Below are positions 4,252 through 36,012 of a DNA stretch of 36,012 nucleotides, piece by piece (the first letter of the stretch is position 1; the number at the start of each line of letters is the position of its first letter). Where the stretch lies: assembly GCF_001467625.1 (NCBI RefSeq), contig NZ_LNYB01000082.1, positions 88,771 to 124,782 on the forward strand, given 5' to 3'. Both the position numbers and the translations under genes were made by a program. The stretch is from Legionella feeleii. GTDB lineage: Bacteria > Pseudomonadota > Gammaproteobacteria > Legionellales > Legionellaceae. Under the pieces are notes generated by a model. The model searched no databases. It was not told where the DNA came from and was given only the letters and a program-made list of their open reading frames with translations.

Positions 4252-5658
4252 TTATCGACGCGATTTAAGAAAATAAGTGCACATCTTTCCCTTGCCTTTT
4301 ACTTCAATTTCGTCTCTTTTTTCAATGACAAACTGGTCTTCCAGAAGTAGTGCCATTTTTTCCGTAATCTGAATTTCTCCAGGAATATTGGTAGCTTCCA
4401 TCCGGCTTGCGATGTTAACCACGTCCCCCCAAACATCATAAATAAATCTTTTGTGTCCAATCACTCCGGCTATCACTGTTCCATAGGTCATTCCTATACG
4501 GGTTTGTAAGTCTATTGCATGAATTTGGGAAAATGTTTTGACTTTTTCTTTTATAGCCAGCGCAAAGTCAGCTATACGAAAGGCATGATCAGCTGCAGGC
4601 TCAGGAATTCCTGCAGCAGCCATATAAGAATCACCAATTGTTTTGATCTTTTCAACACCATATTTTTGTGCCAAATCATCAAAGTCATCAAAAAGACACC
4701 CTAAAATATCAAACATTTTGTTGGTGCCTATTTTCGCCATCATGGCAGTGAAACCTACGATATCACAGAAAAGAACGCTTGCCTGAGGGTACTCATCAGC
4801 AATAATTTTTTCACCTCGTTGAAGCCGCTCTGCGATGGATGATGGAAGGATGTTAAAAAGAAGAAGTTCATTTTCTTTCGCTGTTTTTGCAATTCGGTGT
4901 AAGGCTTTAATAATGGAAATCAACATAACAACAGTGGATAGCACTGAAAGAATGATAGCAATAGAAATAACCTGATTAATTTTGTGAGAAAGTTCCTTAT
5001 TTCTTTCAGTTGTTCTTGCCTTGATTTTTTCGAAAAACAACTGGATGGGAGCCATAATTTTTGCTTTTTCATCCATATATTTCTTGCCAAAAACCAAATC
5101 GATAGCAAGTTTTTTATTGGGTTCTCCCTGACTACTATATTGATCACTTCCGGTATCAAATTTTCCTTCAACAGCATTAATAGCCCTAAATTCAATGGCA
5201 GTCAGTGCATCACTCTTTTCTTGCGCTTGTCTTAGCAGCTCAAATTCCTGCAAAGAAAAACCCTGATCTATCATCATTTGAACTAATGATTTCGCCTTTT
5301 CATAGGGTCTTGGTCTTTTATCATCATCCAATACCAGATCCCAATAGACACTATCGTATTCTTTCGGACGTGGGCTTGTGCCGCTACGAATAGCAATGAT
5401 TTCGTTAAAATGATCAAGGTATTTTTTGTCTCCTGTTATCACGTAAAGACGAACCATCTTTGTCAAATCATCGGATGATATTCGGAGTTCTTGAGCGATA
5501 CGATAAGATTCGTAATGCCTGTTATTGCTTTGCTCCTGAAGAAAAGAGAGATGCTTCAACAAAAACAGACAACCAACCAGGGCAACAACAAGGATAATTA
5601 ATCCAACAAAGAAAGAAACCAACAAGTAATCTTGTTTGAAATGAAAACGATACATCAT
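4252..5658 (-). CDS. Membrane class III adenylate cyclase
   Basis: A 468-residue two-helix sensor cyclase that should convert ATP to cAMP. TM1 is about residues 12-34, then a ~195-residue likely periplasmic domain with no family I recognise, TM2 about 231-252, a short linker beginning with the LLFNILP segment typical of cyclases, then the catalytic domain at ~290-465. Metal-binding aspartates are Asp299 in FCDIVGFT and Asp343 in KTIGDSYM; transition-state residues are Asn415 and Arg419 in NIASR. Base selectors are Lys339 and Asp408 (YDVWGD), the adenine-type pair rather than the Glu/Cys pair of guanylate cyclases. No clear HAMP domain is seen. AAGGAAAGC directly precedes the ATG-ATG start. 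It stands alone, between yqgE and the HAD gene. Confidence 0.9.
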   Translation of the reverse strand: MMYRFHFKQDYLLVSFFVGLIILVVALVGCLFLLKHLSFLQEQSNNRHYESYRIAQELRISSDDLTKMVRLYVITGDKKYLDHFNEIIAIRSGTSPRPKEYDSVYWDLVLDDDKRPRPYEKAKSLVQMMIDQGFSLQEFELLRQAQEKSDALTAIEFRAINAVEGKFDTGSDQYSSQGEPNKKLAIDLVFGKKYMDEKAKIMAPIQLFFEKIKARTTERNKELSHKINQVISIAIILSVLSTVVMLISIIKALHRIAKTAKENELLLFNILPSSIAERLQRGEKIIADEYPQASVLFCDIVGFTAMMAKIGTNKMFDILGCLFDDFDDLAQKYGVEKIKTIGDSYMAAAGIPEPAADHAFRIADFALAIKEKVKTFSQIHAIDLQTRIGMTYGTVIAGVIGHKRFIYDVWGDVVNIASRMEATNIPGEIQITEKMALLLEDQFVIEKRDEIEVKGKGKMCTYFLKSRR

Positions 5659-5882: not shown

Positions 5883-6602
5883 TCAGGGAACCGCTAGCTT
5901 ATTATCAGCTGAAATAGCCTTTTTTTGCCCCAACAGCAAAGTCTCGAGTTCCGCCAACGAAGAAACTTGGTATTTGGGTGTAAGACCCGGTGGGACAGGG
6001 TTATTATGTGCATTAAACCAACAAGTATCTAACCCTGCGTTCAACCCTCCCAGAATATCAGAATCTGGATTATCTCCCACCATTAATACTTGTCCACGCG
6101 CTGGATTTCCCATTAACGAAAGAGCATGTTCAAAAATACCCCTATGAGGCTTGGCAAAGCCTACCTGCTCTGATATTACCAATAGGTCGAAGTAAGCTTT
6201 AAATCCAGTTCGCTCGAGACGAATCTGTTGTAACTCCGTAAATCCGTTGGTAATAATCCCTAGCTTAACTCTCCCTTTCAAAGCAGTTAGTAAACTTAGT
6301 GCCCCTTCAATTGGCGTACAAATATCCGCCATAATGGCCATAAAAGTACTATGCAAAAACTGAGTAGAGACTTGGAGTTGGTCAGCCCAAATCGCAAACC
6401 GCTGATGTTGTAATTCTTGTGCAGTAATTGTACCGTTCTGATAATCTATCCACAACCCTTTATTGAAGACTTGATAAGTCTGGTAATCTTGTTGAGTAAA
6501 ATTGACTTCAAACCGGGAAAGCAGGCGTTGTAAACCAACAAAAGAATCGAAATTAAATAAGGTTTCATCCGCATCAAATAAAATCCACTCATAAGTCTTC
6601 AC
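5883..6602 (-). CDS. yjjG: YjjG-type HAD pyrimidine 5'-nucleotidase
   Basis: A 239-residue HAD-superfamily hydrolase. Motif I is [11 protein letters not shown] with nucleophile Asp10 and acid Asp12; the DADE/LFxFD form is characteristic of YjjG, which hydrolyses dUMP, dTMP and modified pyrimidine nucleotides (house-cleaning). Motif II is ITNG with Thr118, motif III is Lys151 in FAKPH, and motif IV is GDNPDSD at 176-182. A cap domain fills about 20-95. The start is GTG at 6602 (GAGAGA upstream); the nearest upstream ATG is out of frame and stops at once. The C-terminal ~15 residues look unstructured. Substrate choice is inferred from motif I only. Confidence 0.88.
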
Positions 6603-19805: not shown

Positions 19806-20447
19806 CTAAGAAACTAATAATTGATAATCTTGAACCAAAAAATCAGCCTTGTGCGGTGTTGTAAAAAAAGCACTTAAACCACCCTGTGGATTAAACACCA
19901 TCACAGCCCCACTATGTTCTACCTCATAATCGTGAGCATTCTTGGCATTGGGATTTTCGACTTTCGCATAAGCGATACCCATTTCGCGAGTCATCTTTTT
20001 CACCATCTCATTATCGCCTCTAGCGCCATAAAAATGGGGATGAAAAGCTTTGACATAACGTCCAAGTTTATCCAGATCATCTCTTTCAGGATCAACAGAA
20101 ACCATGACAATCTTCGGTAAAGGCTCTACTTTTTGCTCTTCAAGCAAACGATACATTTTAGCCAGTTCTGCCATGGTAGTGGGACATACATACCCACAGC
20201 TAGTAAAACCAAAAAAAATCATAGTCCACTGTCCCTGCAAACTAGCGTTATTAAACGGTTTGTTATCAATCCCTGTTAAGTCAAATTGGTTAATTTCCCG
20301 CGGTTTCTGCAGTAAAGTTCCATTAAATTGCTCGACATCAATTTTCTTTTTAGTATGAATATGTTGCGAGACAAATAATCCAGTAATTAGTGCGACGAAG
20401 GCAAACAAAACAGCCACTGTCAAAGCAATATGATTTTTGGCAGGCAT
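19806..20447 (-). CDS. SCO1/SenC-family copper chaperone
   Basis: A 213-residue membrane-anchored thioredoxin-fold protein that delivers copper to, or reduces, the CuA centre of cytochrome c oxidase. TM anchor ~8-27, then the periplasmic domain. Copper ligands are Cys84 and Cys88 (TSCGYVCPTT, CXXXC) and His178 (VEHSGAVM); the VSVDPERDD segment is typical. All ligands are intact. The ATG has GAGGAGAT directly upstream and lies 9 bases after cyoE. Last gene of the SURF1-(CXXXC protein)-ctaA-cyoE-SCO operon on the minus strand. Confidence 0.95.
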   Translation of the reverse strand: MPAKNHIALTVAVLFAFVALITGLFVSQHIHTKKKIDVEQFNGTLLQKPREINQFDLTGIDNKPFNNASLQGQWTMIFFGFTSCGYVCPTTMAELAKMYRLLEEQKVEPLPKIVMVSVDPERDDLDKLGRYVKAFHPHFYGARGDNEMVKKMTREMGIAYAKVENPNAKNAHDYEVEHSGAVMVFNPQGGLSAFFTTPHKADFLVQDYQLLVS

Positions 20448-20456
20448 TTCATCTCC

Positions 20457-21341
20457 TCAGACATAATGATCAATCAATAAAAATACAAATAACATCATTA
20501 GATAAACAATAGAAAACCGAAAGGTACGCATAGCAACAACTGGTTGTCCATCACGGTACAGCGTAATTGCCCAATATAAAAAACGCAGGCCTAACAAAAT
20601 AGCACCAATAAGATATAGGTAACCGCTCATACCTACCACAAAAGGCAAAACACTTACCACCAGCAGGAGAATAGTATACAAAAGTACATTCAATTTGGTA
20701 AATGGAATACCATGCGTCACTGGTAACATAGGAATTTCCGCATGCTTATATTCTTCAAAACGATAAATAGCCAAGGCCCAAAAATGGGGTGGAGTCCACG
20801 TAAAAATAATGAGAACCAAAAGCAGTGCCTGGGGATCTAAATGGTTTGTGACAGCAGTCCAGCCCAACAAAGGAGGTGCCGCACCAGCTAACCCGCCAAT
20901 CACAATATTTTGGGGCGTCGCTCGCTTCAAATAGCCAGTGTATATTCCCGCATAACCTATTAAAGTTACAAAAGTGAGGACAGCAGTCAAGGTATTAACA
21001 AACAAAATGAGTATTCCCAAGCCCAGAACACCTAGCATCAGTGCAAAATACGAAGCTTGCTTCACCGAAACCTTGCCTTGTGCAACCGGTCTTTTTCGGG
21101 TACGGACCATGATGGCATCGATGCGTTTATCCACAAGATGATTAATCGCTGCTGCACTCCCCGCACACAAACCGATACCGACCAGAGAAGCCAATAAAAT
21201 TGGTAATGCTACCCAGCCGGGTGCCGCTAAATACATTCCAACAACAACAGTAAGCAACATGAGCGCAACCACCTTGGGTTTGCATAGCTCTAAATAATCT
21301 CGCCAATCAACATTTAGACGAGGTTCTGTTTTAATGCTCAT
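20457..21341 (-). CDS. cyoE: Protoheme IX farnesyltransferase (heme O synthase)
   Basis: Transfers a farnesyl group to protoheme to give heme O. A UbiA-superfamily prenyltransferase with about nine TM helices. The prenyl-diphosphate/Mg site is the [20 protein letters not shown] motif (Asp71, Asp75), and the LLGWTAVTN and [15 protein letters not shown] segments are diagnostic. The ATG at 21341 (294 residues) is preferred: AAGGAG lies 8 bases upstream, inside the ctaA 3' end, giving an 11-base overlap with ctaA. An in-frame TTG at 21374 gives a longer N-terminus with no such support. Next in the heme A pathway is ctaA. Confidence 0.95.
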
Positions 21342-22377
21342 CACCAAGTCTCCTTTGAATGGATTTCTTTCCAAACTCTACTGCGGTGGGAAGGGGTCTT
21401 ATAAGATAAAGCATCATCAATACCGTTGCCATTAACATTGCTGCCACTCCATTATGGGCAACAGCAACCCACAATGGAAGTAAGTAGATAACATTCATTA
21501 CCCCAAGAGCAAATTGCGTAATCACCAGAAAAATAGCTAGTAGAGTAATACGACGCAGATATCTGCTATTGGTTTTAAATAACAATAATAACGACAGGCT
21601 TAAAACATACACCGCGGTCAAGACAGCACCCAAACGGTGAATATATTGGATAGTTGTTCTAATCTCGCTGTCTAAAACACCGCCTTGATAATTTGCTCCT
21701 ACAGGTGCAAACAAATTAAATCCCTGCGAAAAATGTAATACAGGCCACCATTGTCCATTACACTGAGGGAAACCAATACAAGAAATCCCGGCATAATTTG
21801 AACTCACCCAACCACCCAAAGCAATTTGACAAAATACGATTACCACCGCCAGGCCTACCCAGAATCTCCACTGCGGTAACATGACAGGGGTAATTGGACT
21901 CAATTGCAAGCGAAATCGGCTTAAACAGGAAAAAATCAGTATACCACCTAATAAATGTCCCATCACAACAACCGGGAGCAGTTTTAATGTAACCGTCCAC
22001 ATCCCCAAGGCGGCCTGAAATAAAACTAAAAAGACCAAGGTTAACGGTAACTGCCAAGGTAAGCGCACACCCCGCAAACGGCGCCAAAGAACATTCGCCG
22101 CAATAAAAAGAATGAGTAGCCCTAAAGTACCTGCGGCATAGCGATGGGCCATTTCGGTCCAGGCTTTACGTGTTTCAATAGGACTGTAAGGATATTGATT
22201 CTGCGCTGACTCTAATGCTTTTTGTGCCTTGGGAAGCACCATATGACCATAACAGCCTGGCCAATCCGGGCAACCCAAACCGGCATCGGTCAAGCGTGTA
22301 TAAGCCCCCAACATAACAACAAACAAAGCCAGAATCACTGCGATTGTTGTTGCATAACGTACTGCTTTCAATTGCAT
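21331..22377 (-). CDS. ctaA: Heme A synthase (COX15/CtaA family)
   Basis: Oxidises the methyl group of heme O to heme A. An eight-helix protein, 348 residues from the ATG at 22377; a GTG at 22389 overlapping the previous gene is the alternative. The four heme-ligand histidines are His78 (AHRYAAG), His141 (GHLLGG), His247 (IHRLGA) and His308 (AHNG), two per symmetric half; extracytoplasmic cysteine pairs are Cys36/Cys42 and Cys200/Cys206. The C-terminal tail after the last helix, about [14 protein letters not shown], is encoded by DNA identical over 17 bases to the end of a family B element (21367-21383), so that tail seems to derive from a repeat insertion. Overlaps cyoE. Confidence 0.94.
21367..21383. 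repeat. Family B end embedded in the ctaA 3' coding tail
   Basis: CTTTCCAAACTCTACTG is identical to 24067-24083 and to the complement of part of 17111-17130. Here it lies inside the reading frame of ctaA, just upstream of the cyoE ribosome binding site. Only one end of the element is visible. Confidence 0.6.
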
Positions 22378-22381
22378 GCGT

Positions 22382-22927
22382 TTAACCACTCTTTTCTGCC
22401 GTACTCAATAACTGTTTAAGATCATGGAATATATCCTGAGAACTAGCAGTCAATGCATAGGATAACACTAAATAATTATCAGGATTTGCTATAAATACCC
22501 GTGGCTCAGGTTTCAAAATTGCCAAGGATTGTCGTTGCTCTTGGGACAGACGTAAGTAGTGGATGTCCTGTTCCTTAAAAGAAGCTATTAAAGACTCTGG
22601 TAATGCTTTGCTATTGTCTGCAAGAATCAACCACTGCTCTACTCCGTATAAACGTCGGCCTAAAGCCAGACGAATGCGTGCAAGTTTATCCAGTTGATTA
22701 AGACAAGTTACGCCACAATCCTCAGGGCTCCACAATAAGAGACGCCATTTATTATTACTACTCATTGCCGGCACAAGAACCGGGGGTTGCAATAATTCGC
22801 CCTTATTTGTCGTTGTGGTCCCTAGCCATTGTGGATGCCTATAATATAAATAAGCAGTTAACCCTGGCGTCATAAATATCAGCGCCAGCAGTACCAAAAC
22901 CATATAATTACGCTTGTTCATCTTCAT
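22382..22927 (-). CDS. Membrane-anchored thioredoxin-fold protein with CXXXC
   Basis: 181 residues, one TM anchor at ~8-28, then a likely periplasmic domain. WSPEDCGVTCLNQL (Cys71-x3-Cys75) sits in the same place as the copper site of SCO proteins, and VFIANPDNYLVLSY near 144-157 resembles the strand that in SCO carries the third ligand, but here there is no histidine. A short uncharacterised protein at this position, between SURF1 and ctaA, is found in many gammaproteobacterial oxidase clusters. A thiol-redox role in oxidase assembly is inferred. It overlaps SURF1 by 20 bases and the GTG form of ctaA by 8, so the genes are translationally coupled. Confidence 0.85.
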   Translation of the reverse strand: MKMNKRNYMVLVLLALIFMTPGLTAYLYYRHPQWLGTTTTNKGELLQPPVLVPAMSSNNKWRLLLWSPEDCGVTCLNQLDKLARIRLALGRRLYGVEQWLILADNSKALPESLIASFKEQDIHYLRLSQEQRQSLAILKPEPRVFIANPDNYLVLSYALTASSQDIFHDLKQLLSTAEKSG

Positions 22928-23639
22928 AGGTTTTCTTCAAATTTAAGGCAACAAATAAAATTAAAACAACAAAAGCAATGACAAACCATTGCAGAGCATA
23001 GGCATAATGTCGCTCAGGAGGCATTGCTACCACCGCCCATTCTCGCACATAGCCATCAGCTTCAGATTTATTGAGGCGAATAATAAACGGATAGACTGAT
23101 TTATGCAAAAATCGACCTATTAATTTTGTGTTTAATTGTTCAACAATGGTTATTTTGCCCTTTTTTTCTACAGAAGGCCCTAATACCCAATCCTTCCCTG
23201 CCGGATAATAGACACGGCCTGTCAAATGCGCAGGACTTGTAGGAATCTGGACCTGCGGCAAGGTTCGTCGCGTTACATCCCCTTTAATCCAGCCCCGATC
23301 GATTAAAATAAGGTTACCAGAATCAAGTTTAAACAGAGTCAGCACATTATAACCGAACTGATGCTGATAATGCTGATTATCCAGCAATAAGATATCCGGG
23401 AGATAATGACCTTTTATGCTTACCGGTTGATATTGCTGCGGGTTTACCATGCCTGGTTGCCAGAGCGTGGGACTTTGGCGGGCAAGCGCAGCCTCTGCCG
23501 CCAGCATTTGCTTTTTCTCTTCCGCCCGTGTCAATTGCCAAAAGCCAAGACGGACAAAAAGCAATATCGCTAGCAAAGCTAAAACCGTCATTCGCCAACC
23601 AGGCGTGAAACGGCGATTAAAACAGGTTAAACTGACCAT
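22908..23639 (-). CDS. SURF1-family cytochrome oxidase assembly protein
   Basis: A 243-residue SURF1/Shy1 homologue that helps insert heme A into oxidase subunit I. TM1 ~16-36 (ends RLGFWQL), an extracytoplasmic domain, then TM2 ~214-234. Family landmarks are the RLGFWQLxRAxEK start, the GYNVLTLF strand, LIDRGWI and the terminal HYAYALQWFVIA. Length fits the family. First gene of the operon; the ATG has only a weak AGAAG site. Its promoter must lie in the ~215-base gap shared with DUF2909, most of which is a family A element. Confidence 0.93.
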   Translation of the reverse strand: MVSLTCFNRRFTPGWRMTVLALLAILLFVRLGFWQLTRAEEKKQMLAAEAALARQSPTLWQPGMVNPQQYQPVSIKGHYLPDILLLDNQHYQHQFGYNVLTLFKLDSGNLILIDRGWIKGDVTRRTLPQVQIPTSPAHLTGRVYYPAGKDWVLGPSVEKKGKITIVEQLNTKLIGRFLHKSVYPFIIRLNKSEADGYVREWAVVAMPPERHYAYALQWFVIAFVVLILFVALNLKKTYEDEQA

Positions 23640-24267: not shown

Positions 24268-24888
24268 ATGTACACACTGTACTCAGCGGGAACTCCTAAT
24301 GGAATAAAACCAACCATTATGCTTGAAGAGTTAAAAGTCCCCTATGACATCAAGCGAGTCAATATCAGCGAAGGTGAACAGTTCAAACCTGAGTTTTTGA
24401 AAATCTCCCCTAATAATAAAATCCCGGTTATCTACGATCAAGAAAACGATTTTTATTTATTTGAGAGTGTCGCCATTCTTGAGTATTTGGCAGATAAACA
24501 TCAACAATTTTTGCCTAAAGATCTTAAACATCGATTTAATGTACTCAAATGGTGCTATTTCCAGGTAGGACATATAGGGCCTATGTTTGGTCAATATGGT
24601 CATTTTCACCGTTATGCACCAGAACAGGTGCCCTATGCTAAAAAGCGTTATGCTGATGAGGTTTTACGTTTAATCGCCGTCATGGATAAGGAATTAGTAC
24701 AACATGCTTATATTAGCGGTACAGAATATACTATCGCTGATATGGCTATCTGGCCCTGGCTTTATTGCTATGAGAACTTCTATAAAGCAACCATTGATGC
24801 CAAACAATTCCCTCATTTAATCCAATGGTATCAAATGATTGCACAACGCCCACAGGTCAAGGCAGCGCTGGCAGCCTATAAAGACTAA
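24268..24888 (+). CDS. Glutathione S-transferase (Nu/YfcG-like)
   Basis: A 206-residue soluble GST. Thioredoxin-fold domain 1-80: TPNGIKPTIMLEEL helix, the cis-proline at Pro53 in KIPVI and the glutathione gamma-glutamyl contact Glu66-Ser67 (FESVAI). The C-terminal helical domain 90-205 is complete. NISEGEQFKPEFLKISPNNK is characteristic of the YfcG/YghU group, which has disulfide-bond reductase activity toward 2-hydroxyethyl disulfide. Substrate in vivo unknown. AAGGATAG lies about 8 bases before the ATG. A strong hairpin follows, so it is monocistronic. Confidence 0.92.
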   Translation: MYTLYSAGTPNGIKPTIMLEELKVPYDIKRVNISEGEQFKPEFLKISPNNKIPVIYDQENDFYLFESVAILEYLADKHQQFLPKDLKHRFNVLKWCYFQVGHIGPMFGQYGHFHRYAPEQVPYAKKRYADEVLRLIAVMDKELVQHAYISGTEYTIADMAIWPWLYCYENFYKATIDAKQFPHLIQWYQMIAQRPQVKAALAAYKD

Positions 24889-25092: not shown

Positions 25093-25108
25093 TATGAGAA
25101 AAATGACG

Positions 25109-25633
25109 ATGGCACAGGGCGGCAAGCGGGCGGGAGCCGGGCGACCAAAAGGTTCCAATATTTGGGGCGAACCCACAAAAGCGGTACGTATTCCTCTTTC
25201 ACGGATAAATGGCGTTAGACAGTTTCTTGAAACGGGTAATATAAGCTGCGCCCTGCCTCTTTATTCAAGCACTGTAAGAGCAGGATTCCCCTCTCCTGCA
25301 GATGACCACATTGAATCTTTTCTCGATTTAAACAGTCATTTGATTAAACATCCAGCGGCAACTTTTTTTGTCATTGCTTCAGGAGATTCGATGCAAAATG
25401 CGGGTATTCAATCGGGTGACTTGTTGATCGTTGATAAAAGTTTGGAAGCAACTCATGGAAAAATTGTTATTGCCGCTATTGACGGGGAGTTAACCGTTAA
25501 ACGGCTTTCACGTCTGGCTAATCGAGTCCAATTGCTACCTGAAAATGAGGGCTATCAAGCGATTGATATCACTAACGAACAAGAGCTTGTCATCTGGGGT
25601 GTAGTGACTCACGTTATACATCAAGCAGGTTAA
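25109..25633 (+). CDS. umuD: UmuD-family S24 protease with N-terminal extension
   Basis: A LexA-like self-cleaving protein; the cleaved form partners UmuC in DNA polymerase V. From the ATG at 25109 it has 174 residues, against about 139 in E. coli; upstream ATGs at 25094 and 25103 are possible but the first abuts a palindrome. The self-cleavage site is Ala58-Gly59 (VRAGFPSP), the catalytic pair Ser94 (SGDSMQNAG) and Lys131 (LTVKRLS). The extra ~40 N-terminal residues (GGKRAGAGRPKGSN... TKAVRIPLSRI) are basic and resemble extensions on UmuD proteins that act as DNA-damage regulators, such as that of Acinetobacter. umuC starts one base after its stop. Confidence 0.93.
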   Translation: MAQGGKRAGAGRPKGSNIWGEPTKAVRIPLSRINGVRQFLETGNISCALPLYSSTVRAGFPSPADDHIESFLDLNSHLIKHPAATFFVIASGDSMQNAGIQSGDLLIVDKSLEATHGKIVIAAIDGELTVKRLSRLANRVQLLPENEGYQAIDITNEQELVIWGVVTHVIHQAG

Positions 25634-25634
25634 T

Positions 25635-26888
25635 ATGTATGCTCTGATTGACTGTAATAATTTTTATGCCTCCTGCGAGCGTCTATTCAGGCCCGACTTG
25701 CATAACAAGCCTATCGTTATTCTCTCCAATAACGATGGGGCAATTATCTCGCGTTCGAACGAAGCCAAAGCGTTAGGAATCAAAATGGGAGAACCTTACT
25801 TTAAAGTCAAAGGATTTTGTAAACAGCATAAAGTTCATGTTTTTTCCTCAAATTACACGCTCTATAGAGATCTGTCACAACGAGTCATGTCTGTCATTGA
25901 AGAGTTTTGGCAAGATATGGAAATTTACTCTATTGATGAAGCATTTTTAGATTTAAGCACCATGCCACCCTCTCTGCATGATAACTTCTGCATCACCCTT
26001 CAAAAACGCATTTTGCAATACACCGGAATTCCTACTTCTATAGGTATCGGTAGTACAAAAACGCTAGCAAAAATAGCCAATCATATTTGTAAGACAGAAC
26101 TCAAAATTGCAGTTTTTAATGTCAGCAGACAACAAGATTGGCTTAAGAAAATTAATGTTGGGGAGGTTTGGGGCATTGGGCGGCAATGGCAGAAAAAGCT
26201 AATACAACGAGGGATTCATACTGCCTATGACTTGGCAAGTACAAATGTCCATTTGCTCAGAAAACAATACAATGTCATCCTTATGCGAACAGCAATGGAA
26301 TTGCAAGGAATTTCTTGTTTAAGCCTGGAAGAAGCTGAACCCAGGCACTCTATTCTTTCTTCACGTTCCTTTGGCAGCATGCAGACTGGCTTCGAGCCTC
26401 TTGCTCAAGCAATTAGTAGCCATTGCGCCATTGCCTGTGAGAAATTACGCCGACAGCATTTGCTAGTGCAATCGCTATCCATCTTTGTAAAAACAAACCG
26501 TTTTCGTGCTGATTTAGCCCAATACCATCAATCTATAACTCTAAAACTGGAGATGCCAACGGATGATTTACGCTTAATTACCCATTATGGTAAAGAAGGG
26601 TTGCGTCAAATATACAAAGCGGGTTTCCAATATAAAAAAGTGGGCATTTGCTTAGAGGAACTCATCAGTAAAGAGCATCTGCAACTGGATATTTTTCACC
26701 AGCCGCAAAAGAAATTTGAAAAAACAGAGCAAATTATGACAGTACTTGAGGCGATTAATCACAAATACGGTCGCCATTCTATTAAACTGGCTGCAGAAGG
26801 TTACTCGAAAACCTGGGCTATGAAATCGGAATTAAGATCACCAGCCTACACAACCCGTTGGTCCGACTTAGCCAAAGTTAAAAGCTAA
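25635..26888 (+). CDS. umuC: DNA polymerase V subunit UmuC
   Basis: A 417-residue Y-family translesion polymerase. Metal ligands are Asp6 (YALIDCNNFY) and Asp101-Glu102 (YSIDEAFLD); the dNTP-binding loop SNNDGAIISRSNEAK is at 31-45 and the helix-hairpin-helix VWGIGRQWQKKL at 178-189. A sliding-clamp motif QLDIF is at 350-354, matching QLxLF. All catalytic elements are intact. It directly follows umuD with overlapping translation signals (TAATATG), so the two form one operon. Whether damage-induced depends on the palindrome upstream of umuD. Confidence 0.96.
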   Translation: MYALIDCNNFYASCERLFRPDLHNKPIVILSNNDGAIISRSNEAKALGIKMGEPYFKVKGFCKQHKVHVFSSNYTLYRDLSQRVMSVIEEFWQDMEIYSIDEAFLDLSTMPPSLHDNFCITLQKRILQYTGIPTSIGIGSTKTLAKIANHICKTELKIAVFNVSRQQDWLKKINVGEVWGIGRQWQKKLIQRGIHTAYDLASTNVHLLRKQYNVILMRTAMELQGISCLSLEEAEPRHSILSSRSFGSMQTGFEPLAQAISSHCAIACEKLRRQHLLVQSLSIFVKTNRFRADLAQYHQSITLKLEMPTDDLRLITHYGKEGLRQIYKAGFQYKKVGICLEELISKEHLQLDIFHQPQKKFEKTEQIMTVLEAINHKYGRHSIKLAAEGYSKTWAMKSELRSPAYTTRWSDLAKVKS

Positions 26889-27013
26889 ATTTTATTGGCT
26901 GTACATCAACAATTATCTATTTAAAATCGCCCGATTTACTTGACAGTATTAATTTTTACTATCTACACTATTGAGTGCTGAAAGTGGGATTATTAAGGCA
27001 CAGCTTAACCGCT

Positions 27014-27052: not shown

Positions 27053-27322
27053 ATGAAAAAAGTAACTGGTACCGCATTAGCATTCGGCGCAGCAGCTATA
27101 TTCTCTGTAGCTCCTGTCTTCGCATCATCTGCTTCTGATGCTCCTATGGTTCAGTGCAAAGGCGTTAATGCTTGCAAAGGCCAAAGCGCTTGCAAAACTG
27201 CTAACAATTCTTGTAAAGGTCAAAACGCCTGTAAAGGTCAAGGTGTTACTATGATGACCCAAGATGCGTGCCAAAAAGCTGGCGGCACAACAGATGCTGG
27301 CAACTCTACAACTCAGCAATAA
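27053..27322 (+). CDS. bufA: Bufferin-type cysteine-rich precursor peptide
   Basis: 89 residues. A Sec signal peptide (residues 1-24, MKKVTGTALAFGAAAIFSV then APVFA before the cut) is followed by a cysteine-rich core: Cys35, 41, 47, 54, 60 and 73, with repeated CKG/ACKGQ motifs. The layout matches bufferins, periplasmic ribosomally made metallophores whose cysteines are modified to thiooxazoles by an MNIO enzyme so that they chelate copper. The CKGxNACKGQ pattern differs from the DUF2282 BufA1 type and is closer to what I recall of BufA2-like peptides; subclass is uncertain. The ATG has GGA about 7 bases upstream. bufB follows across a hairpin. Confidence 0.85.
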   Translation: MKKVTGTALAFGAAAIFSVAPVFASSASDAPMVQCKGVNACKGQSACKTANNSCKGQNACKGQGVTMMTQDACQKAGGTTDAGNSTTQQ

Positions 27323-27331
27323 TTAATTATT

Positions 27332-27357
27332 ACCAGGCATGTTTTTGCATGCCTGGT
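27332..27357 (+). terminator. Hairpin between bufferin precursor and maturase
   Basis: ACCAGGCATG (27332-27341) pairs perfectly with CATGCCTGGT (27348-27357) around a 6-base loop, 9 bases after the precursor stop, then TTCTTATC. Within an operon it may act as a partial terminator or mRNA-end protector, so that more precursor than maturase is made. Confidence 0.6.
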
Positions 27358-27375
27358 TCTTATCAATAAGTCGTT

Positions 27376-28236
27376 ATGAATTCTATTCTCAAAGAGCCGC
27401 AAAAAATGCCCTACCTCGGGTTTGGTTTGGGGTTACGTCCTGAGCATTATGAAGAAATACTACAACAAAAACCGTCTCTGGATTGGCTTGAGATCATTAC
27501 TGAGAATTATTTAATACCCGGCGGTAAGCCGCTCTATTATCTGGATAAAATTCGCCAGGATTACCCTCTTGTGATGCATGGCGTGTCACTATCTCTTGGC
27601 AGTACAGATCCGCTCGATAAAACTTATCTCAAAGAAGTAAAATTACTGGCCGAACGTATTGAACCTGTTTGGATTTCTGATCATCTATGCTGGACAGGCA
27701 TTCATGGGCTGAATATGCACGATTTATTGCCCCTGCCCTATACCGAGGAAGCCATTAAGCATATCGCTTCTCGCATTATTGAAATACAGGATTATTTAGG
27801 TCGGCAAATTCTTATTGAGAATGTTTCCAGCTACCTCACATTCCTCCAATCAGAACTCACCGAATGGGAATTCATTACAGAAATTTCCAATCGCGCCGAT
27901 TGCTATATTTTATGTGATGTCAATAACATCTATGTCAGTTCAGTTAATCATCATTTTAATGCCCTTGATTACATTCATGGCATACCACCCCGACGCGTAG
28001 CCCAGATTCATCTTGCCGGCCACTCCGACCATGGTGATTACATCATTGATACTCATGATGCCCCAATAGTCGAAGCGGTGTGGGATTTATATGCCAAGAC
28101 TATTGAACGTTTGGGACCGGTTTCAACGATGATAGAGCGGGATGACAATATTCCTCCCTTATCGGATTTATTAATTGAATTAAATCAAGCCAGAAAAATT
28201 GCAAACAACCTTTCCATGAAGGAGTTAGCAATATGA
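27376..28236 (+). CDS. bufB: MNIO-family (DUF692) bufferin maturase
   Basis: A 286-residue TIM-barrel enzyme of the DUF692/MNIO family, multinuclear non-heme iron oxidases that modify cysteines in RiPP precursors. Expected metal ligands are seen in order: His68 (MHGVSLS), His103 (SDHLCW), Glu148 (IENVSSY), Asp181 with Asn183 (CDVNN), His212 and His216 (HLAGH), Asp225 or His227 (DTHD) and Glu254 (MIERDD). GLGLR and TEN near the N-terminus are also typical. Start: ATG 27376, or ATG 27406; neither has a strong ribosome binding site. The stop overlaps the next gene by four bases. It should act in the cytosol on the precursor before export. Confidence 0.93.
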   Translation: MNSILKEPQKMPYLGFGLGLRPEHYEEILQQKPSLDWLEIITENYLIPGGKPLYYLDKIRQDYPLVMHGVSLSLGSTDPLDKTYLKEVKLLAERIEPVWISDHLCWTGIHGLNMHDLLPLPYTEEAIKHIASRIIEIQDYLGRQILIENVSSYLTFLQSELTEWEFITEISNRADCYILCDVNNIYVSSVNHHFNALDYIHGIPPRRVAQIHLAGHSDHGDYIIDTHDAPIVEAVWDLYAKTIERLGPVSTMIERDDNIPPLSDLLIELNQARKIANNLSMKELAI

Positions 28237-29018
28237 TTGACTTACATCACTTACAAGATAGCTTACAAAACTACTTACTCAAGAACCCAAGCGATATTCA
28301 AACAGCGATTGTAACCAGCGATAAAGTACCTGCAGCCAAGCGTCTGGGTATTTATGGAGATGCTTATCGTCTCCGCCTTCTTGAAGCATTGGCTGCTAAT
28401 TACCCTATTCTCAAACACCACCTGGGCGAAGATGCCTTTCAGGAAATAGGCGAGAACTATATTCATAGTCACCCCTCCTGTTATCGTTCAATTCGTTGGT
28501 TTGGTGATAAATTTGCTGAGTATCTAGCAGGCGACAAAAATAGTAATTATCCTTATCTAGCGGAACTTGCCCAATTTGAATGGCATATGACGCTAGCCTT
28601 TGATGCTGCGGATACCAGGCTAGTCAATATTGAAGATATGGCGACCCTGGCACCAGAATCTTGGCCTACTATGCAGTTTCTTACTCATCCATCTTTACAC
28701 CGCCTCAATTTTGTGTGGAATGTTGTCACTCTCTGGCAAGCTCTGGCAAATGAACAACCCTTCACTGAGAAAGAGCTGGTAATGAATAGTAACCCATTGC
28801 CATGGGTTGTTTGGCGTCATGATTATACCATTCGGTTTTATGCCTTAGCCGAGGACGAAGCCTGGGCTCTTGATGCCCTAATCCAAGGACTGAGTTTTGG
28901 TGAATTATGTGCAGGGCTCTGTGAATGGATAGAGGAACAAGAGGTAGGCATGCGAGCTGCCTCATTATTGAAAAGCTGGATACAATCAGGTTTATTGGCA
29001 GAAATAAAACTCAATTAA
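28233..29018 (+). CDS. bufC: DUF2063 (HvfC/BufC-like) RiPP partner protein
   Basis: 261 residues. The N-terminal DUF2063 domain (~1-105) carries the recognised RLGIYGDAYRLRLLEALAANYP segment and the IRWFGDKFAEYL motif; the C-terminal half is the second domain usual in this family. Members accompany MNIO enzymes in bufferin and Hvf clusters and are thought to present the precursor peptide. The start codon overlaps the maturase stop (ATGA), so the two are translationally coupled. Old annotations as DNA-binding rest on weak similarity. A short family A hairpin follows its stop. Confidence 0.92.
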   Translation: MIDLHHLQDSLQNYLLKNPSDIQTAIVTSDKVPAAKRLGIYGDAYRLRLLEALAANYPILKHHLGEDAFQEIGENYIHSHPSCYRSIRWFGDKFAEYLAGDKNSNYPYLAELAQFEWHMTLAFDAADTRLVNIEDMATLAPESWPTMQFLTHPSLHRLNFVWNVVTLWQALANEQPFTEKELVMNSNPLPWVVWRHDYTIRFYALAEDEAWALDALIQGLSFGELCAGLCEWIEEQEVGMRAASLLKSWIQSGLLAEIKLN

Positions 29019-29024
29019 AGACTG

Positions 29025-29071
29025 GGGTCTGTTGACATTTCGCTAGCTTGAGTCGAAACGTCAACAGGCCC
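29025..29071. repeat. Short hairpin derivative of family A after bufC
   Basis: GGGTCTGTTGAC (29025-29036) and GTCAACAGGCCC (29060-29071) pair at 11 of 12; inside, TTTCG and CGAAA extend the stem, leaving an 11-base loop CTAGCTTGAGT. The interior CATTTCGCTAGCTTGAGTCG is the left end of the family A units at 1-545. Just after the bufC stop, so it may end or process the buf transcript. Confidence 0.7.
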
Positions 29072-29124
29072 TACCAATTAATAAAAAATTTGAGCCCAGC
29101 ATCATGCCGCGCTAAGGTTTTTCT

Positions 29125-30783
29125 ATGCAACTTGATTTTCTGGATATTATCCTGGGCTTTTTTGAAGGCTTCGCCTTAATTATTTCACCTTGTATTCTGC
29201 CTATTTTGCCTATTATTCTTGCCGGTTCTTTCTCAGGTAGCAAGAAACGTCCGATAGGGATTATTATAGGTTTTGTTATAACGTTTACCCTCTTCGCATT
29301 TTTTTCACGTCAATTGGTTCAATACTCTGGTATCGATCTCAATATCATTCGTCATTTTTCTTACGGCATACTACTGTTATTAGGCATTATTATGCTCTCA
29401 ACTTATCTCACAGAAAAATTTAGCCATCTAACGCAGCGCCTGGTTGGAGTAAGTTCAGCCTTCTCTGCCGCAGCCAATCCACAAGGCGGGTTGATAAGTG
29501 GTTTTTTCTTTGGCGCTTTGGTCGCAATTATCTGGACACCCTGTGCAGGCCCTATCCTTGCAGCAATTATCGTCCAAACAGTGATCCAGCAAACAACTAT
29601 CATCAGTTTTCTAACTCTCCTGGCTTTTAGCCTGGGAGCCGCCATACCGATGCTAATCATCGCACTTTATGGCATAACCATCATGGATAAATTCACTTTT
29701 TTCAAAACAAGGACATCTCTTTTTCGCAAAATTCTAGGACTAATCATTATCGCAAGTGTTGCTTATATGATTTATCAAGAACGAGGAGAGGCCACTTCCA
29801 CAACAACAGCCAAGACAAGTATTCAAACCGCTACGACATTGCAAAATGGTTTATGGCTTCCTTACAAAGCACCTGCAATAAGCAGTATAGAAGCCTGGAT
29901 AAACTCAGCTCCTTTGCAATTGACTAATCTAAAAGGCAAAGTCATTCTCGTTGATTTTTGGACCTATTCTTGTATTAATTGTGTCCGTACCCTACCTTAT
30001 CTTAAAAACTGGTATGACAACTATCACGATAAAGGCTTGGTTATTATCGGTGTACATAGTCCCGAATTTGATTTTGAAAAAAATCTGGACAATGTTAAAA
30101 ATGCGGTGAAACGTAACGGCATTAAATACCCGGTCGCACTCGACAATCAATTTGTAACCTGGCGCAATTTTAATAATCATTATTGGCCTGCTCATTATTT
30201 AATTAATAAAGAAGGGGAGGTTGTCTATAAGCATTTGGGTGAAGGGGACTATGAGATCACAGAAAACAACATCCGCTTTCTATTGGGGATCGGCGGGATT
30301 GCCATGCCTACTGAGGCCAGCACCGATCATCCATCACTCGCTGAAACACCAGAAACCTATTTGGGTTATGCACGCGCAGACAGGAATGCCAGCCCCTATC
30401 CCTTAATTCATGATAAACCCGCGCAGTATAGCTTCCCAGAACAATTAGCCTCCAATAGCTGGGCTTTACAAGGACTGTGGCAGGTGATGCCTGATAAAAT
30501 TATCTCCATGCAAGCCAATGCAGCTATACAAATTCAATTTAATGCCCGTAAAGTTTTTGTAGTAATGGGGAATACTTCCTCAAAACCGATTCAGGTGAAA
30601 CTACTTCTAGATGGTCGAAGGATCACGACAGAGAAAGGTAAAGATGTGATTAACAGCAGCATTAACGTCAATAAACATTCTATTTATGAGCTGGTCGTTT
30701 TACCTCATTTTGCCGACGGTATTTTACAAATAACAGCGACTGAACCGGGGCTTGCTATCTATACTTTTACCTTTGGCAGTTAA
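29125..30783 (+). CDS. CcdA-TlpA-like fused thiol-disulfide carrier (DipZ-like)
   Basis: 552 residues in three parts. Residues 1-218 are a CcdA-type membrane domain of about six helices with redox Cys23 (SPCILPILP) and Cys140 (TPCAGPI). Residues ~245-400 are a periplasmic TlpA-like thioredoxin domain with CINC at 283-286 (FWTYSCINCVRTLPYL). Residues ~410-550 form a beta-rich domain seen at the C-terminus of mycobacterial DipZ-like proteins. It should carry electrons from cytoplasmic thioredoxin to periplasmic thiols. AAGG lies about 8 bases upstream of the ATG. It follows the bufferin genes on the same strand after 106 bases; a link (keeping precursor cysteines or SCO-type sites reduced) is inferred from context. 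Confidence 0.9.
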   Translation: MQLDFLDIILGFFEGFALIISPCILPILPIILAGSFSGSKKRPIGIIIGFVITFTLFAFFSRQLVQYSGIDLNIIRHFSYGILLLLGIIMLSTYLTEKFSHLTQRLVGVSSAFSAAANPQGGLISGFFFGALVAIIWTPCAGPILAAIIVQTVIQQTTIISFLTLLAFSLGAAIPMLIIALYGITIMDKFTFFKTRTSLFRKILGLIIIASVAYMIYQERGEATSTTTAKTSIQTATTLQNGLWLPYKAPAISSIEAWINSAPLQLTNLKGKVILVDFWTYSCINCVRTLPYLKNWYDNYHDKGLVIIGVHSPEFDFEKNLDNVKNAVKRNGIKYPVALDNQFVTWRNFNNHYWPAHYLINKEGEVVYKHLGEGDYEITENNIRFLLGIGGIAMPTEASTDHPSLAETPETYLGYARADRNASPYPLIHDKPAQYSFPEQLASNSWALQGLWQVMPDKIISMQANAAIQIQFNARKVFVVMGNTSSKPIQVKLLLDGRRITTEKGKDVINSSINVNKHSIYELVVLPHFADGILQITATEPGLAIYTFTFGS

Positions 30784-32609: not shown

Positions 32610-35600
32610 TTATCTACCAAATATTTCGGGGCCTTTGTCTTGATTCTCCCTTAACTCATCCATTGTTTGCTTAAAGGTACTCTTATAAGCAGAACTAATA
32701 GACGTCGCGAGTTTGTCTGCCTTTTCCAAGGTTTTTTGATGAATGACTCTTTCTGCACAAGCTTCTTTAATGCCTTTAAGCAAATTATCCACATAGCCCT
32801 TGTGAGGCTTGAAAAGCGCCTCCTGATAGGAGCTACTGCTATAACCATAGAATGTACCGAGTTCATTGGCTGGCTTGAACGTTGGGCTTATCACATTAAT
32901 TGCTTTATGATTAAATTGCATGGACGGTATCTCACTACCCAGTGTCATCAAGGCTGTCCATATATAACCCATTTCTTTTTCTTCAAAGCCACGCAATATA
33001 ACTTGGTTACTGGCTGTAGGCGGCTCACTGAAGGCACTTAATAGGGTCACTGCACAAGCGAAAGCAAAATGTATTCTATCTTCAACCAGCTGAGGATCAT
33101 CTTCCGGGACTCCATGAGGAGCCTCAGGAAATTTAGTTATGGTCAACTTAAGATCAGATAGATACTCGCTTGCATTGGCAAGACTGGTACGATAACTCGA
33201 TGCTCTCTCTTCAATATAAGATCCAGAATATCGACCGGTGCGTGCCGCATCGGGATTAATAGTATGTTCTCTAAAATGCCCTGCTTTAAAGGCATCACCA
33301 GCCGCATATCGGGCTTGGTGAGCCCCCAAGCCTAAGGTCGTCGATCTGGCACTGACTGTTGTGGCACTCGATGTATAGCCCGCTCTAAAATGGGCAGCCC
33401 TTTCGTCCATCGGGTGATCTGTAGCAGCACTCTTGAAAGGAAAGACCTCAAGAGCGCCCTCATCTGTTTTTGCCCGGCGAATGGTTTCTAATATGCCGTC
33501 CTTCGACACCGGATCGACCGCTCTCGGATCACCGTACAATTGCGTATATACTGGTTTATAGAGCGCCAATTCCGTTTCTACTTTTCTCAAATAGGTAGTT
33601 AAGAGAGCCTTACGGTCTTGAAGTGCCTTCTTCTGCGGTTCAGTGAATCCATCCATATTAACCGGAATGCTGTTTATTTGCTCAAATAATTCATTACGAA
33701 GTGGAACCAGATAATCCACAATCACTTTACAAGTGGTTGCCAACTCAGTGAAATGAGCTTCCATTGCTATTGCATTTTTCTTGGCGGCGCCCCGGAAAGC
33801 AGGGCTAAACCAATGCATAGGATTCATAGCCCCTAATTGGCGTAATTCACTACGAACCTTGTCATCAACGGTACCAATCGCACCTACACGTCTATTGATA
33901 CCGGTTAATGTAGTTCTATCAGCCGCTAACGTTGCGGCGTATCGACCGGGATCTGAATAAGCATCGCGCTTTTCATTACGCTCATCACGAAGAGCAACGA
34001 TCCGCCTGCTCGCCGCTTCACGAACCCGCAGATAGGCATCATCTTGCACTAAAGCCTGAATATTCCGTAGATTAAGCTCATCAACTTGATGCCAGTTGTG
34101 ATTTAATGCTGCATTGCTATTAGCGGTGGAAATCTCAGTTAGCAGCTCCTTATCCTTACTGACAGCTATTTCTCGTTGCAAAGCATGAATAGCCTTTTCC
34201 TGCGCGATGATCCTTGGATCAGGTTCGTCTGGACGACGATGCCTTGCAGCATCTAAAACAAGTAAACGTGCCCTTGCCAAATCAGCAAATTGAGTATGAG
34301 CATCGTCTTTAATCAGCGCTCGTAAATGCTCTGCATTCCCTTTACGAAACATTCTAAAAGTTACTTCTAAAAACTCATTTGTTCTAGCTTCCCCGCTAAC
34401 AGCTTCCAAAAATCGTGCATCGTCGCATCCATTAATGAAATCGGTTAGGGCAACAATAGCGGCTTGGTTAGCATCCAAGCGAGCTTGAGCTCTGGCTTTA
34501 ATGTCCCGAAAAGCATCTACACTAGTCAAAGCAGCCACATGCCCGGCATTTAAATCACCCAATCCATCATTTGCCACAACAGCAGCTACTCGAGTTAATA
34601 ACTCGACATCGTGACTACCATTAACTTCGGCTATCAGGGCTGCCTTTGCTTCCAGTTCCAAAGCACCTAAACGAGCTATTGCCTCGTCCCTGATTCCTTC
34701 AAAAGCAGTAGGTCCATGCAAAGCGTTTACAGAGTCATCAAAACCACGCCCTAATAAGGCAGCGTTACGATCTGCGGCAGCTACCGCGCGTAAAACCACC
34801 AAATCCCTACTACCTCGGATTGTGCCTTTTAAAGTATTCGTTGCTTCTAAGCTTAGAGCGACCAATCGAGCTCCGGCTTCATCTCTAATTCCTTCATAAG
34901 CAGTAGCACCTCGCAAAAATCCTACATGCTCATTAAAGCCAACCCCTACCCGCAAGTCACCATTGCCTGCAGCAGCAGCAATCGCACGCAAAGCGGCCAA
35001 ATCTCTGCTATCCCGGATTGTGGCTTTTAATGCATTACTTGCTTGTTGACTTAGAGCTGTCAGACGTTCATCGGCAGCTGTTTGAATTTGTGCTTGCCAT
35101 ACAATGACTCCAATCGCACGAACAGAAGCGACTTGCTCAACATGGGCACCATCATTCCACCCGATATCATCCAAATTTAAACCAGCTGGATTATTAGCAC
35201 TATAGATAGCAGTTAATAAAGCTACATTATCACTCTCTTTAATAAGAGGTTTGAGCACAAGTAGTGCTTTTTGCTCGGCAACTTCGGCTAATTGACGAAC
35301 TAATTGCTCAATTTCGGCTTGTTTTAGTAGAGCACTCTGTCTTTCTCTGGCTTCAGCTTCGCGTGCACGTAATATTTCTTGTTCTCTCTCTCGGGCAACG
35401 GCTTCAAGTTCGCTTATCTTATCTGAAAGTTTATTATTCGCACCATCAAGCTCATCAACCTGCTGTTGTAACAAGCGGTTGCTGGCTTCTGCTTGCTCTA
35501 ATGTTTTGGCCGTACTTGACGCTAATTGCTCAGCTTTGACCAGTGCAATCTGTTGCTCTGATAATTGGCCGCGTAACTCTTCCTGCGCTTCATGGTTTAA

Positions 35601-36012
35601 GCGACCACTCTCTTCCAATTGATGCGTTAACTCCTTAGCCTGAGAAGTTAAACTGGACACATCCTCTTTCAAACCATCAATCGTCGTTTGACGCGTCCTT
35701 AGCTCTTCTTCATGACGCTCAATCGTTGAACTTAAATCGCTTACCCGATCCTCTGAAACCTTTAACTGACTTTGCAAGCCACTAAGCGCTTTCTCATGAT
35801 TGATACGCGCTGTTTCAAGCTCTCGCTGCAACTCACCTGTAAGGTCTTCTCCTCGTTTAATGCGCTCTTCTAACGATTTAACCTGCTTCACATGAGCCTG
35901 CGCCGATGCGTCGATCTCTTTCTCTAAGCGACTTGACTTCTCAACCTCAGATTGCAAGGCTAGCTTGGTACTTGATACTTCAGCCACCGCGGATTCCGCC
36001 CGCAGCGTCTCT
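32610..36012 (-). CDS. Long coiled-coil repeat protein, effector candidate (5' end outside window)
   Basis: At least 1133 residues; the frame stays open to the right edge, so the true start is outside (a GTG at 35987 is only internal). Residues below are counted from that GTG. 1-240: continuous charged heptads (Leu/Glu/Gln/Lys-rich coiled coil). 245-669: about six repeats of 63-73 residues (245-316, 317-382, 383-447, 448-510, 511-583, 599-669), pattern L..xI..S.DL..LR.IA........L...HV..L....AYEGIRDEA..RL.AL. 670-1125: a mixed domain without recognised motifs, with a Ser/Thr/Arg-rich stretch near 865-935. No signal peptide or membrane helix is seen in this part. Long soluble coiled-coil proteins of this type in Legionella are often Dot/Icm substrates; that is inference. 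A strong terminator follows. Confidence 0.85.
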   Translation of the reverse strand, partial: ETLRAESAVAEVSSTKLALQSEVEKSSRLEKEIDASAQAHVKQVKSLEERIKRGEDLTGELQRELETARINHEKALSGLQSQLKVSEDRVSDLSSTIERHEEELRTRQTTIDGLKEDVSSLTSQAKELTHQLEESGRLNHEAQEELRGQLSEQQIALVKAEQLASSTAKTLEQAEASNRLLQQQVDELDGANNKLSDKISELEAVAREREQEILRAREAEARERQSALLKQAEIEQLVRQLAEVAEQKALLVLKPLIKESDNVALLTAIYSANNPAGLNLDDIGWNDGAHVEQVASVRAIGVIVWQAQIQTAADERLTALSQQASNALKATIRDSRDLAALRAIAAAAGNGDLRVGVGFNEHVGFLRGATAYEGIRDEAGARLVALSLEATNTLKGTIRGSRDLVVLRAVAAADRNAALLGRGFDDSVNALHGPTAFEGIRDEAIARLGALELEAKAALIAEVNGSHDVELLTRVAAVVANDGLGDLNAGHVAALTSVDAFRDIKARAQARLDANQAAIVALTDFINGCDDARFLEAVSGEARTNEFLEVTFRMFRKGNAEHLRALIKDDAHTQFADLARARLLVLDAARHRRPDEPDPRIIAQEKAIHALQREIAVSKDKELLTEISTANSNAALNHNWHQVDELNLRNIQALVQDDAYLRVREAASRRIVALRDERNEKRDAYSDPGRYAATLAADRTTLTGINRRVGAIGTVDDKVRSELRQLGAMNPMHWFSPAFRGAAKKNAIAMEAHFTELATTCKVIVDYLVPLRNELFEQINSIPVNMDGFTEPQKKALQDRKALLTTYLRKVETELALYKPVYTQLYGDPRAVDPVSKDGILETIRRAKTDEGALEVFPFKSAATDHPMDERAAHFRAGYTSSATTVSARSTTLGLGAHQARYAAGDAFKAGHFREHTINPDAARTGRYSGSYIEERASSYRTSLANASEYLSDLKLTITKFPEAPHGVPEDDPQLVEDRIHFAFACAVTLLSAFSEPPTASNQVILRGFEEKEMGYIWTALMTLGSEIPSMQFNHKAINVISPTFKPANELGTFYGYSSSSYQEALFKPHKGYVDNLLKGIKEACAERVIHQKTLEKADKLATSISSAYKSTFKQTMDELRENQDKGPEIFGR

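What the first reader, a model, noticed from the sequence alone, without database searches (positions are those of the whole stretch)
27053..29018. Bufferin-type RiPP metallophore cluster with a CKG-repeat precursor
A signal-peptide-bearing, six-cysteine precursor, an MNIO (DUF692) enzyme with all expected metal ligands and a DUF2063 partner are adjacent and coupled. The precursor core carries repeated CKGxNAC/CKGQ units with 6-residue spacing at Cys35-41-47 and 54-60, unlike the DUF2282 type. The regular spacing suggests several cysteines may be modified in series, giving a multi-site copper chelator. The product and its metal are not known for this lineage as far as I can tell.
Basis: partly seen in the sequence, partly recalled or inferred. 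Interest (0 to 1): 0.75.

Follow-up and report, generated by a model that had tools for sequence, protein, structure and literature searches.

The report
BufA2-type copper-buffering peptide operon
A Legionella-group bacterium carries an intact but ordinary member of a recently described family of small exported peptides whose cysteines are probably modified by an iron enzyme so that the peptide can soak up toxic copper outside the cytoplasm.

Summary
In detail: a precursor gene (27053-27322), an MNIO/DUF692 gene (27376-28236) and a DUF2063 gene (28233-29018) are intact, co-directional and closely spaced; the precursor has a signal-peptide-like start and Cys 35/41/47/54/60/73. The class call (bufferin) is right, but the "CKG-repeat" precursor is not new: it passes the curated BufA2 model (89.1 bits, cut-off 60), and 56 of 56 six-Cys precursors of this motif near related loci, the window's included, share its Cys spacing. 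The MNIO passes the BufB model and reads IERDD, as reported for Cys-Lys captophorin enzymes. Buf2, including a Legionella one, is in print (PMC12452194).

Beyond the finding: this genome has one MNIO but also an unlinked DUF2282 (Buf1) precursor; in five congeners read, both precursors flank one MNIO. Of 112 Legionellaceae genomes, 23 have one full-length MNIO, beside bufA2, plus a DUF2282 gene. So one maturase may serve both families, or Buf1 works unmodified. Congeners also have MNIO-linked CKS-hexapeptide precursors with up to 24 evenly spaced Cys. Modification, metal and phenotype are inferred, not shown.

The parts
26940..26969 (+). probable sigma-70-type promoter of bufA2: TTGACA - 18 nt - TACACT
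   Evidence: best promoter hit of the region, 10 of 12 matches (9 hits found, 5.9 expected, so the scan alone is weak); CTTGACAG and TCTACACTA are invariant in all 8 aligned Legionella upstream regions
27053..27322 (+). bufA2: 89-aa precursor with signal-peptide-like start, 6 Cys, five of them in CK motifs
   Evidence: NCBIfam NF050166 89.1 bits, cut-off 60; spacing 6-6-7-6-13; no Pfam match
27376..28236 (+). bufB: MNIO (DUF692) bufferin maturase, IERDD motif
   Evidence: NF050167 386.3 bits, cut-off 310; PF05114; alignment A2; 3BWW homologue
28233..29018 (+). bufC: DUF2063 partner protein (PME-type 1), C-terminal half RRE-like by model coverage
   Evidence: PF09836 70.5 bits; HvfC model matched over residues 34-256 but at 54.2 bits, below cut-off 142
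29014..29082 (.). imperfect inverted repeat whose core is dispersed in the genome, at the place where some congeners have bufA1-yceI-cytb561-yceI
   Evidence: arms 76% complementary; 26 further matches in the own genome to parts of the 115-base query
29125..30783 (+). DipZ-like CcdA/DsbD-thioredoxin protein; accessory role possible, not shown
   Evidence: Pfam DsbD_TM, Redoxin, Thioredoxin_10; downstream of bufC in several congeners, absent from the stretches of others such as G009

Best explanation
A Buf2 bufferin (captophorin) operon. BufA2 is made with a Sec signal peptide and presented by BufC (DUF2063 plus RRE-like part) to BufB, an iron MNIO, which oxidises several of the five Cys in CK motifs, most likely to 5-thiooxazoles. 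The peptide is then exported, cleaved near residue 24 and buffers excess copper in the periplasm. Shown here: gene content, family membership, conserved Cys grid, enzyme motifs, purifying selection, a conserved promoter-like block. Inferred from relatives: the presentation by BufC, the chemistry, the number of sites modified, copper as the metal, the protective role.
For: Curated BufA2 and BufB models passed; bufA-bufB-bufC order; HvfC-like partner over most of its length; Cys grid shared by 56 of 56 six-Cys precursors that fit my motif (the motif itself fixes the first spacing); IERDD as in the reported Cys-Lys signature (PMC13097082 section 14); 50 of 50 Legionellaceae genomes with an above-cut-off BufA2 also have a full-length MNIO; reported mass loss, 305 nm absorbance and copper role of C. 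vibrioides Buf2 (PMC12452194 Discussion); low dN/dS.
Against: The Buf2 modification has not been identified, by the authors' own statement. No DoxX gene among the neighbours scanned. BufC falls below the HvfC equivalog cut-off and neither it nor its 16-row profile has a significant sequence match in the PDB, 3DEE included. No copper-operator-like dyad was seen by eye upstream. The signal peptide was not scored.
Confidence: 0.88

Rival explanations
1. The BufB/BufC pair is a shared maturase: it modifies BufA2 in its own operon and also, in trans, the unlinked DUF2282 (Buf1) precursor of the same genome, and possibly a small 12-Cys CxG peptide. The operon is one half of a split two-precursor cluster. 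(This extends the best explanation rather than excluding it.)
For: One MNIO and one DUF2063 gene in a 99.89% complete genome that also has a DUF2282 gene at G000:C81:251153. Congeners G002, G003, G007, G008, G009 have bufA2-bufB-bufC-bufA1-yceI-cytb561-yceI in one run (in G002 an opposite-strand ORF lies between bufA1 and yceI). 3 of 80 loci (L038, L059, L086; MAGs named only as Gammaproteobacteria) have bufA2-bufB-bufC-bufA1. Of 56 Legionellaceae genomes with DUF2282 and a full-length MNIO, 29 have exactly one full-length MNIO with no DUF2282 within 400 nt, and in 23 of the 29 it is beside bufA2. The 11 DUF2282 proteins aligned that are not next to an MNIO start keep four Cys (11 plus 2 MNIO-adjacent of the 20 rows). 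The orphan bufA1 has dN/dS about 0.06.
Against: No biochemical evidence. The two DUF2282-adjacent MNIOs of the genus that I checked read IEWDK, not IERDD, and published work places the groups in separate areas of the network. Sharing was already suggested in general terms. G094 keeps a DUF2282 gene with no MNIO found.
Confidence: 0.4
2. The orphan DUF2282 peptide acts unmodified as a thiol or disulphide protein in the YceI/cytochrome b561 operon, and BufB modifies only BufA2.
For: DUF2282 sits before yceI-cytb561-yceI away from any MNIO in the window's genome and in G004; stand-alone precursor genes are reported.
Against: 56 of 57 DUF2282-positive Legionellaceae genomes also have a full-length MNIO, whereas only 1 of 46 without one has DUF2282 (not corrected for ancestry).
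Confidence: 0.4
3. The operon handles another metal or an oxidant (gold, mercury, hypochlorite) rather than copper.
For: A gold response of a Legionella Buf1-type promoter (PMC5413113) and MerC-Buf2 fusions are in print; a thiol-redox neighbour here.
Against: Characterised relatives bind copper (abstract of PMC13097082; PMC12452194).
Confidence: 0.12

Closest known systems
Buf2 / BufA2 bufferins (Caulobacter vibrioides Buf2; L. pneumophila Buf2 named in the Fig. 3 legend of PMC12452194)
   Same: curated model passed, six Cys with the family grid, signal-peptide-like start, bufA-bufB-bufC order, DUF2063 partner
   Different: no DoxX gene among the neighbours scanned; followed by a DipZ-like gene
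Buf1 (DUF2282) bufferins, including the L. pneumophila GIG operon (PMC5413113)
   Same: MNIO plus DUF2063, signal-peptide Cys precursor
   Different: four Cys without CKG motifs; two linked MNIOs checked here read IEWDK rather than IERDD; the window precursor has no DUF2282 match
Lys-Cys captophorins: oxazolin (HvfA), fontiphorin, gonophorin (PMC13097082)
   Same: MNIO-PME1, 5-thiooxazole, copper
   Different: EGKCG repeats; FonBC does not process an NACKG substrate
Methanobactin (MbnA/MbnBC)
   Same: MNIO family and Cys oxidation
   Different: no signal peptide, other partner (MbnC), copper acquisition; MbnB model scores 55.3 against a cut-off of 325

Membership tests
Buf2/BufA2 bufferin | precursor passes the curated BufA2 profile | tested here: met
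   NF050166 89.1 bits, cut-off 60
Buf2/BufA2 bufferin | six conserved Cys with family spacing | tested here: met
   6-6-7-6-13; of 56 six-Cys precursors fitting my motif (window included) 52 identical, 4 with 14 at the end; the motif fixes the first spacing
Buf2/BufA2 bufferin | Sec signal peptide | tested here: inconclusive
   clear by eye and conserved in alignments; no predictor run
Buf2/BufA2 bufferin | MNIO of the bufferin type, directly downstream | tested here: met
   NF050167 386.3 bits, cut-off 310; gap 53 nt
Buf2/BufA2 bufferin | PME-type 1 partner: DUF2063 plus RRE-type domain | tested here: inconclusive
   DUF2063 met; C-terminal part matched only by the HvfC model, 54.2 bits against 142 (all 16 aligned partners match that model at E up to 0.001); no significant PDB sequence match; structure prediction not accepted
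Buf2/BufA2 bufferin | Cys modified by BufB/BufC, copper binding, copper phenotype | not testable with these tools
   needs mass spectrometry and growth tests
Captophorin, Cys-Lys group | multiple Cys-Lys motifs; Asp after the catalytic Asp of the MNIO | tested here: met
   five CK motifs; IERDD against the published description
Buf1 (DUF2282) bufferin | DUF2282 domain in the precursor | tested here: not met
   no Pfam match for the window precursor; the genome's DUF2282 gene lies on another contig
Methanobactin | MbnB-type MNIO | tested here: not met
   TIGR04159 55.3 bits, cut-off 325

The most novel reading that the evidence does not exclude
In Legionellaceae a single Buf2-type maturase pair serves two different precursor families, its own BufA2 and a DUF2282 Buf1 peptide that is often unlinked, and its natural recognition unit is the CKxxNx hexapeptide, which congeners have expanded into exported arrays of up to 24 evenly spaced Cys.
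Probability: 0.35. Interest if true: 0.5.

Novelty: new member of a known kind. Interest (0 to 1): 0.28.

Why it matters
As a single locus it adds one conserved Buf2 operon in the Legionella lineage, whose members live in man-made water systems and amoebae (general knowledge; the first also in the abstract of PMC5413113). The wider pattern matters more: genomes with two precursor families and one MNIO make the open question of whether one maturase accepts several precursor classes directly testable, and the CKS-hexapeptide arrays offer natural long substrates for asking how an MNIO works along repeats.

Tried and rejected
Considered and rejected: a new precursor family (it passes the BufA2 model); DUF2282 type; methanobactin; an anti-phage role (no PADLOC hit for bufB or bufC). 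A copper-operator dyad was looked for by eye in the upstream alignment and none was conserved. PDB sequence searches for BufC gave no significant hit. A CKS-repeat query found no confirmed relative in viral contigs and another none in plasmids. Text searches for MNIO with hexapeptide repeat and for MNIO, copper, precursor, DUF2282 and orphan together found no paper; these are narrow searches. PMC12538549 was seen only as outline and abstract and is not used.

Weaknesses of my own counts. The motif fixes the first Cys spacing at 6. The motif script used ATG starts only and so missed two TTG/GTG-started DUF2282-adjacent MNIOs, which were checked; its loose 'B1' label is unreliable for 12-Cys Buf2 precursors and was used only for L038, L059 and L086, where one search agrees. 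L032 has bufA1 and yceI upstream of bufB and a bufA2-like hit on the other strand, and L065 has a second MNIO beside its bufA1; neither is counted as a mixed operon. The 80 loci were found partly with a pattern holding ERDD, so the frequency of that motif among them is circular and is not used as evidence.

Rows dropped: six partial rows of 113 (G079 two, G110 two, G045, G012), so 66 rather than 67 genomes count as having a full-length MNIO, and G012 and G110 count as having one; only the 55 rows above cut-off were used. The 112 genomes are a draw from a larger group with completeness at least 90.

Full report
What is there. Three intact genes on the + strand: 27053-27322, 27376-28236 and 28233-29018. 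The first encodes 89 residues with a signal-peptide-like start and Cys at 35, 41, 47, 54, 60 and 73. Shuffling residues 25-89 shows that the even spacing and the CK pairing are not chance (203 and 1 of 100,000). The second is an MNIO (PF05114, 374 bits) and the third a DUF2063 protein (70.5 bits).

What family. The precursor matches NCBIfam BufA2 at 89.1 bits (cut-off 60) and the enzyme matches BufB at 386.3 (cut-off 310); the partner matches HvfC over residues 34-256 at 54.2, below cut-off 142, and all 16 aligned partners match that model at E up to 0.001. In the window and the 80 genome loci, 75 precursors fit my motif (C.G.N.C, which fixes the first spacing), 56 of them, the window's included, with exactly six Cys; the spacing is 6-6-7-6-13 in 52 and 6-6-7-6-14 in 4. 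The 'CKG-repeat' is therefore the hallmark of Buf2. PMC12452194 (Introduction, parts 1 and 2 of Results, sections 18-20 and Discussion seen) describes Buf2 as 6- or 12-Cys precursors, models a Legionella one, and says that preliminary work on C. [quoted passage not shown] PMC13097082 (abstract, sections 13-15 and passages) calls the wider class captophorins, with a Cys-Lys group whose MNIOs have Asp after the catalytic Asp; the window enzyme reads IERDD there, whereas the two DUF2282-adjacent enzymes of the genus that I checked read IEWDK.

How it probably works. BufC presents the precursor to BufB, which oxidises CK-motif cysteines, probably to 5-thiooxazoles; the peptide is then exported and chelates copper. 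The site-3 residues needed for activity in HvfB (PMC13419390 section 23) appear to fall in motifs present here (DVNN, DTH; mapped by motif). An invariant CTTGACAG / TCTACACTA pair precedes bufA2 in 8 of 8 aligned Legionella upstream regions. Selection against G004 is purifying on all three genes. None of the chemistry or metal binding is shown here.

Genome context. The genome (90 contigs, 99.89% complete) is Legionella-like: its BufB is 94% identical to that of L. tunisiensis. It holds one MNIO, one DUF2063 gene, one BufA2 above cut-off and one DUF2282 gene on another contig, followed by yceI, cytochrome b561 and yceI genes. In G002, G003, G007, G008 and G009 the order is bufA2-bufB-bufC-bufA1-yceI-cytb561-yceI in one run (in G002 with an opposite-strand ORF between bufA1 and yceI); dipZ follows in the G002 and G007 stretches, a BON gene in G009, other genes in G003 and G008. 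G001 fits by distance only. In the window bufC is followed by a dispersed-repeat hairpin and then dipZ. I read this as a split of a two-precursor cluster; the direction of change is inferred.

Family survey. In 112 Legionellaceae genomes drawn at completeness 90 or more (tallied) DUF2282 is in 57, a full-length MNIO in 66 and above-cut-off BufA2 in 50. All 50 BufA2 genomes and 56 of 57 DUF2282 genomes have a full-length MNIO; G094 is the exception. In 47 of the 56 no MNIO has a DUF2282 gene within 400 nt; 29 of these have exactly one full-length MNIO, and in 23 of the 29 it lies beside bufA2, with DUF2282 about 0.9 kb away in 8 and elsewhere in 15. Either the Buf2 maturase also handles Buf1, or Buf1 works unmodified. 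Ancestry was not corrected for, and some assemblies are fragmented. Sharing of one maturase by several precursors was already proposed in general.

Repeat-expanded relatives. Outside the window, MNIO loci of congeners have signal-peptide-like precursors made of CKSxNx hexapeptides: 18 Cys with 17 successive spacings of six (L144:1305-1859), 24 Cys with 23 (L150:2781-3440), 15 and 13 Cys (L148), 12 and 14 (L151), 14 and 7 (L143). Those of L144, L150 and one each of L148 and L151 end within 75 nt of the MNIO start; those of L143 lie downstream, 3 kb or more away. The BufA2 model reaches L148:330-737 at 32.9 bits and does not match L143:5344-5871; the genes of L144 and L151 appear at 26.6 and 25.1 bits, all below the cut-off of 60.

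Verdict. A sound observation, a correct class, an ordinary member of a known family; the one-maturase pattern and the hexapeptide arrays are the parts worth following.

Noticed in passing
L144:1305-1859, L150:2781-3440, L148:330-737 and 860-1471, L151:2012-2353 and 4168-4797, L143:5344-5871 and 6061-6279: Signal-peptide-like precursors with CKSxNx hexapeptide arrays (7 to 24 Cys, mostly at 6-residue spacing) at MNIO loci of congeneric genomes; four of the eight end within 75 nt of the MNIO start. Below the BufA2 cut-off or unmatched where seen.
   Followed up: partly
L103:2707-2928 (-), also L156 and L157: Orphan 73-aa peptide with signal-peptide-like start and 12 Cys as consecutive CxG units, found at high identity only in the window's genome, G004 and G021 of 22 genomes (11 to 13 Cys); a possible further MNIO substrate or a metallothionein-like peptide.
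   Followed up: partly
L102:3034-5084 (+): Orphan DUF2282 precursor followed by yceI, cytochrome b561 and yceI, without an MNIO in the stretch read.
   Followed up: yes
L147:552-1955 (G021:C101): MNIO and DUF2063 domains in one 467-aa frame, an apparent natural BufB-BufC type fusion.
   Followed up: no
window 25094-26888: umuD/umuC-like genes sit between a GST gene (24268-24888) and bufA2; umuC also precedes bufA2 in L. tunisiensis (L022) and G004 (L107), whereas gst adjoins bufA2 in other congeners such as L105 and L106.
   Followed up: partly
window 29014-29082 and 2-506: Inverted repeat with a dispersed core (26 further matches in the genome); a similar CATTTCGCTAGC-TGAGTCG stretch recurs by eye in a 137-bp tandem array at the window start.
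   Followed up: partly
window 19806-23639 (-): Cytochrome oxidase assembly genes (SCO1, UbiA-type, COX15/CtaA, SURF1) a few kb from the bufferin operon; copper-related neighbours, possibly coincidence.
   Followed up: no
window 32610-35987 (-): 1125-aa open frame, coiled-coil-like by eye, with no Pfam match.
   Followed up: no
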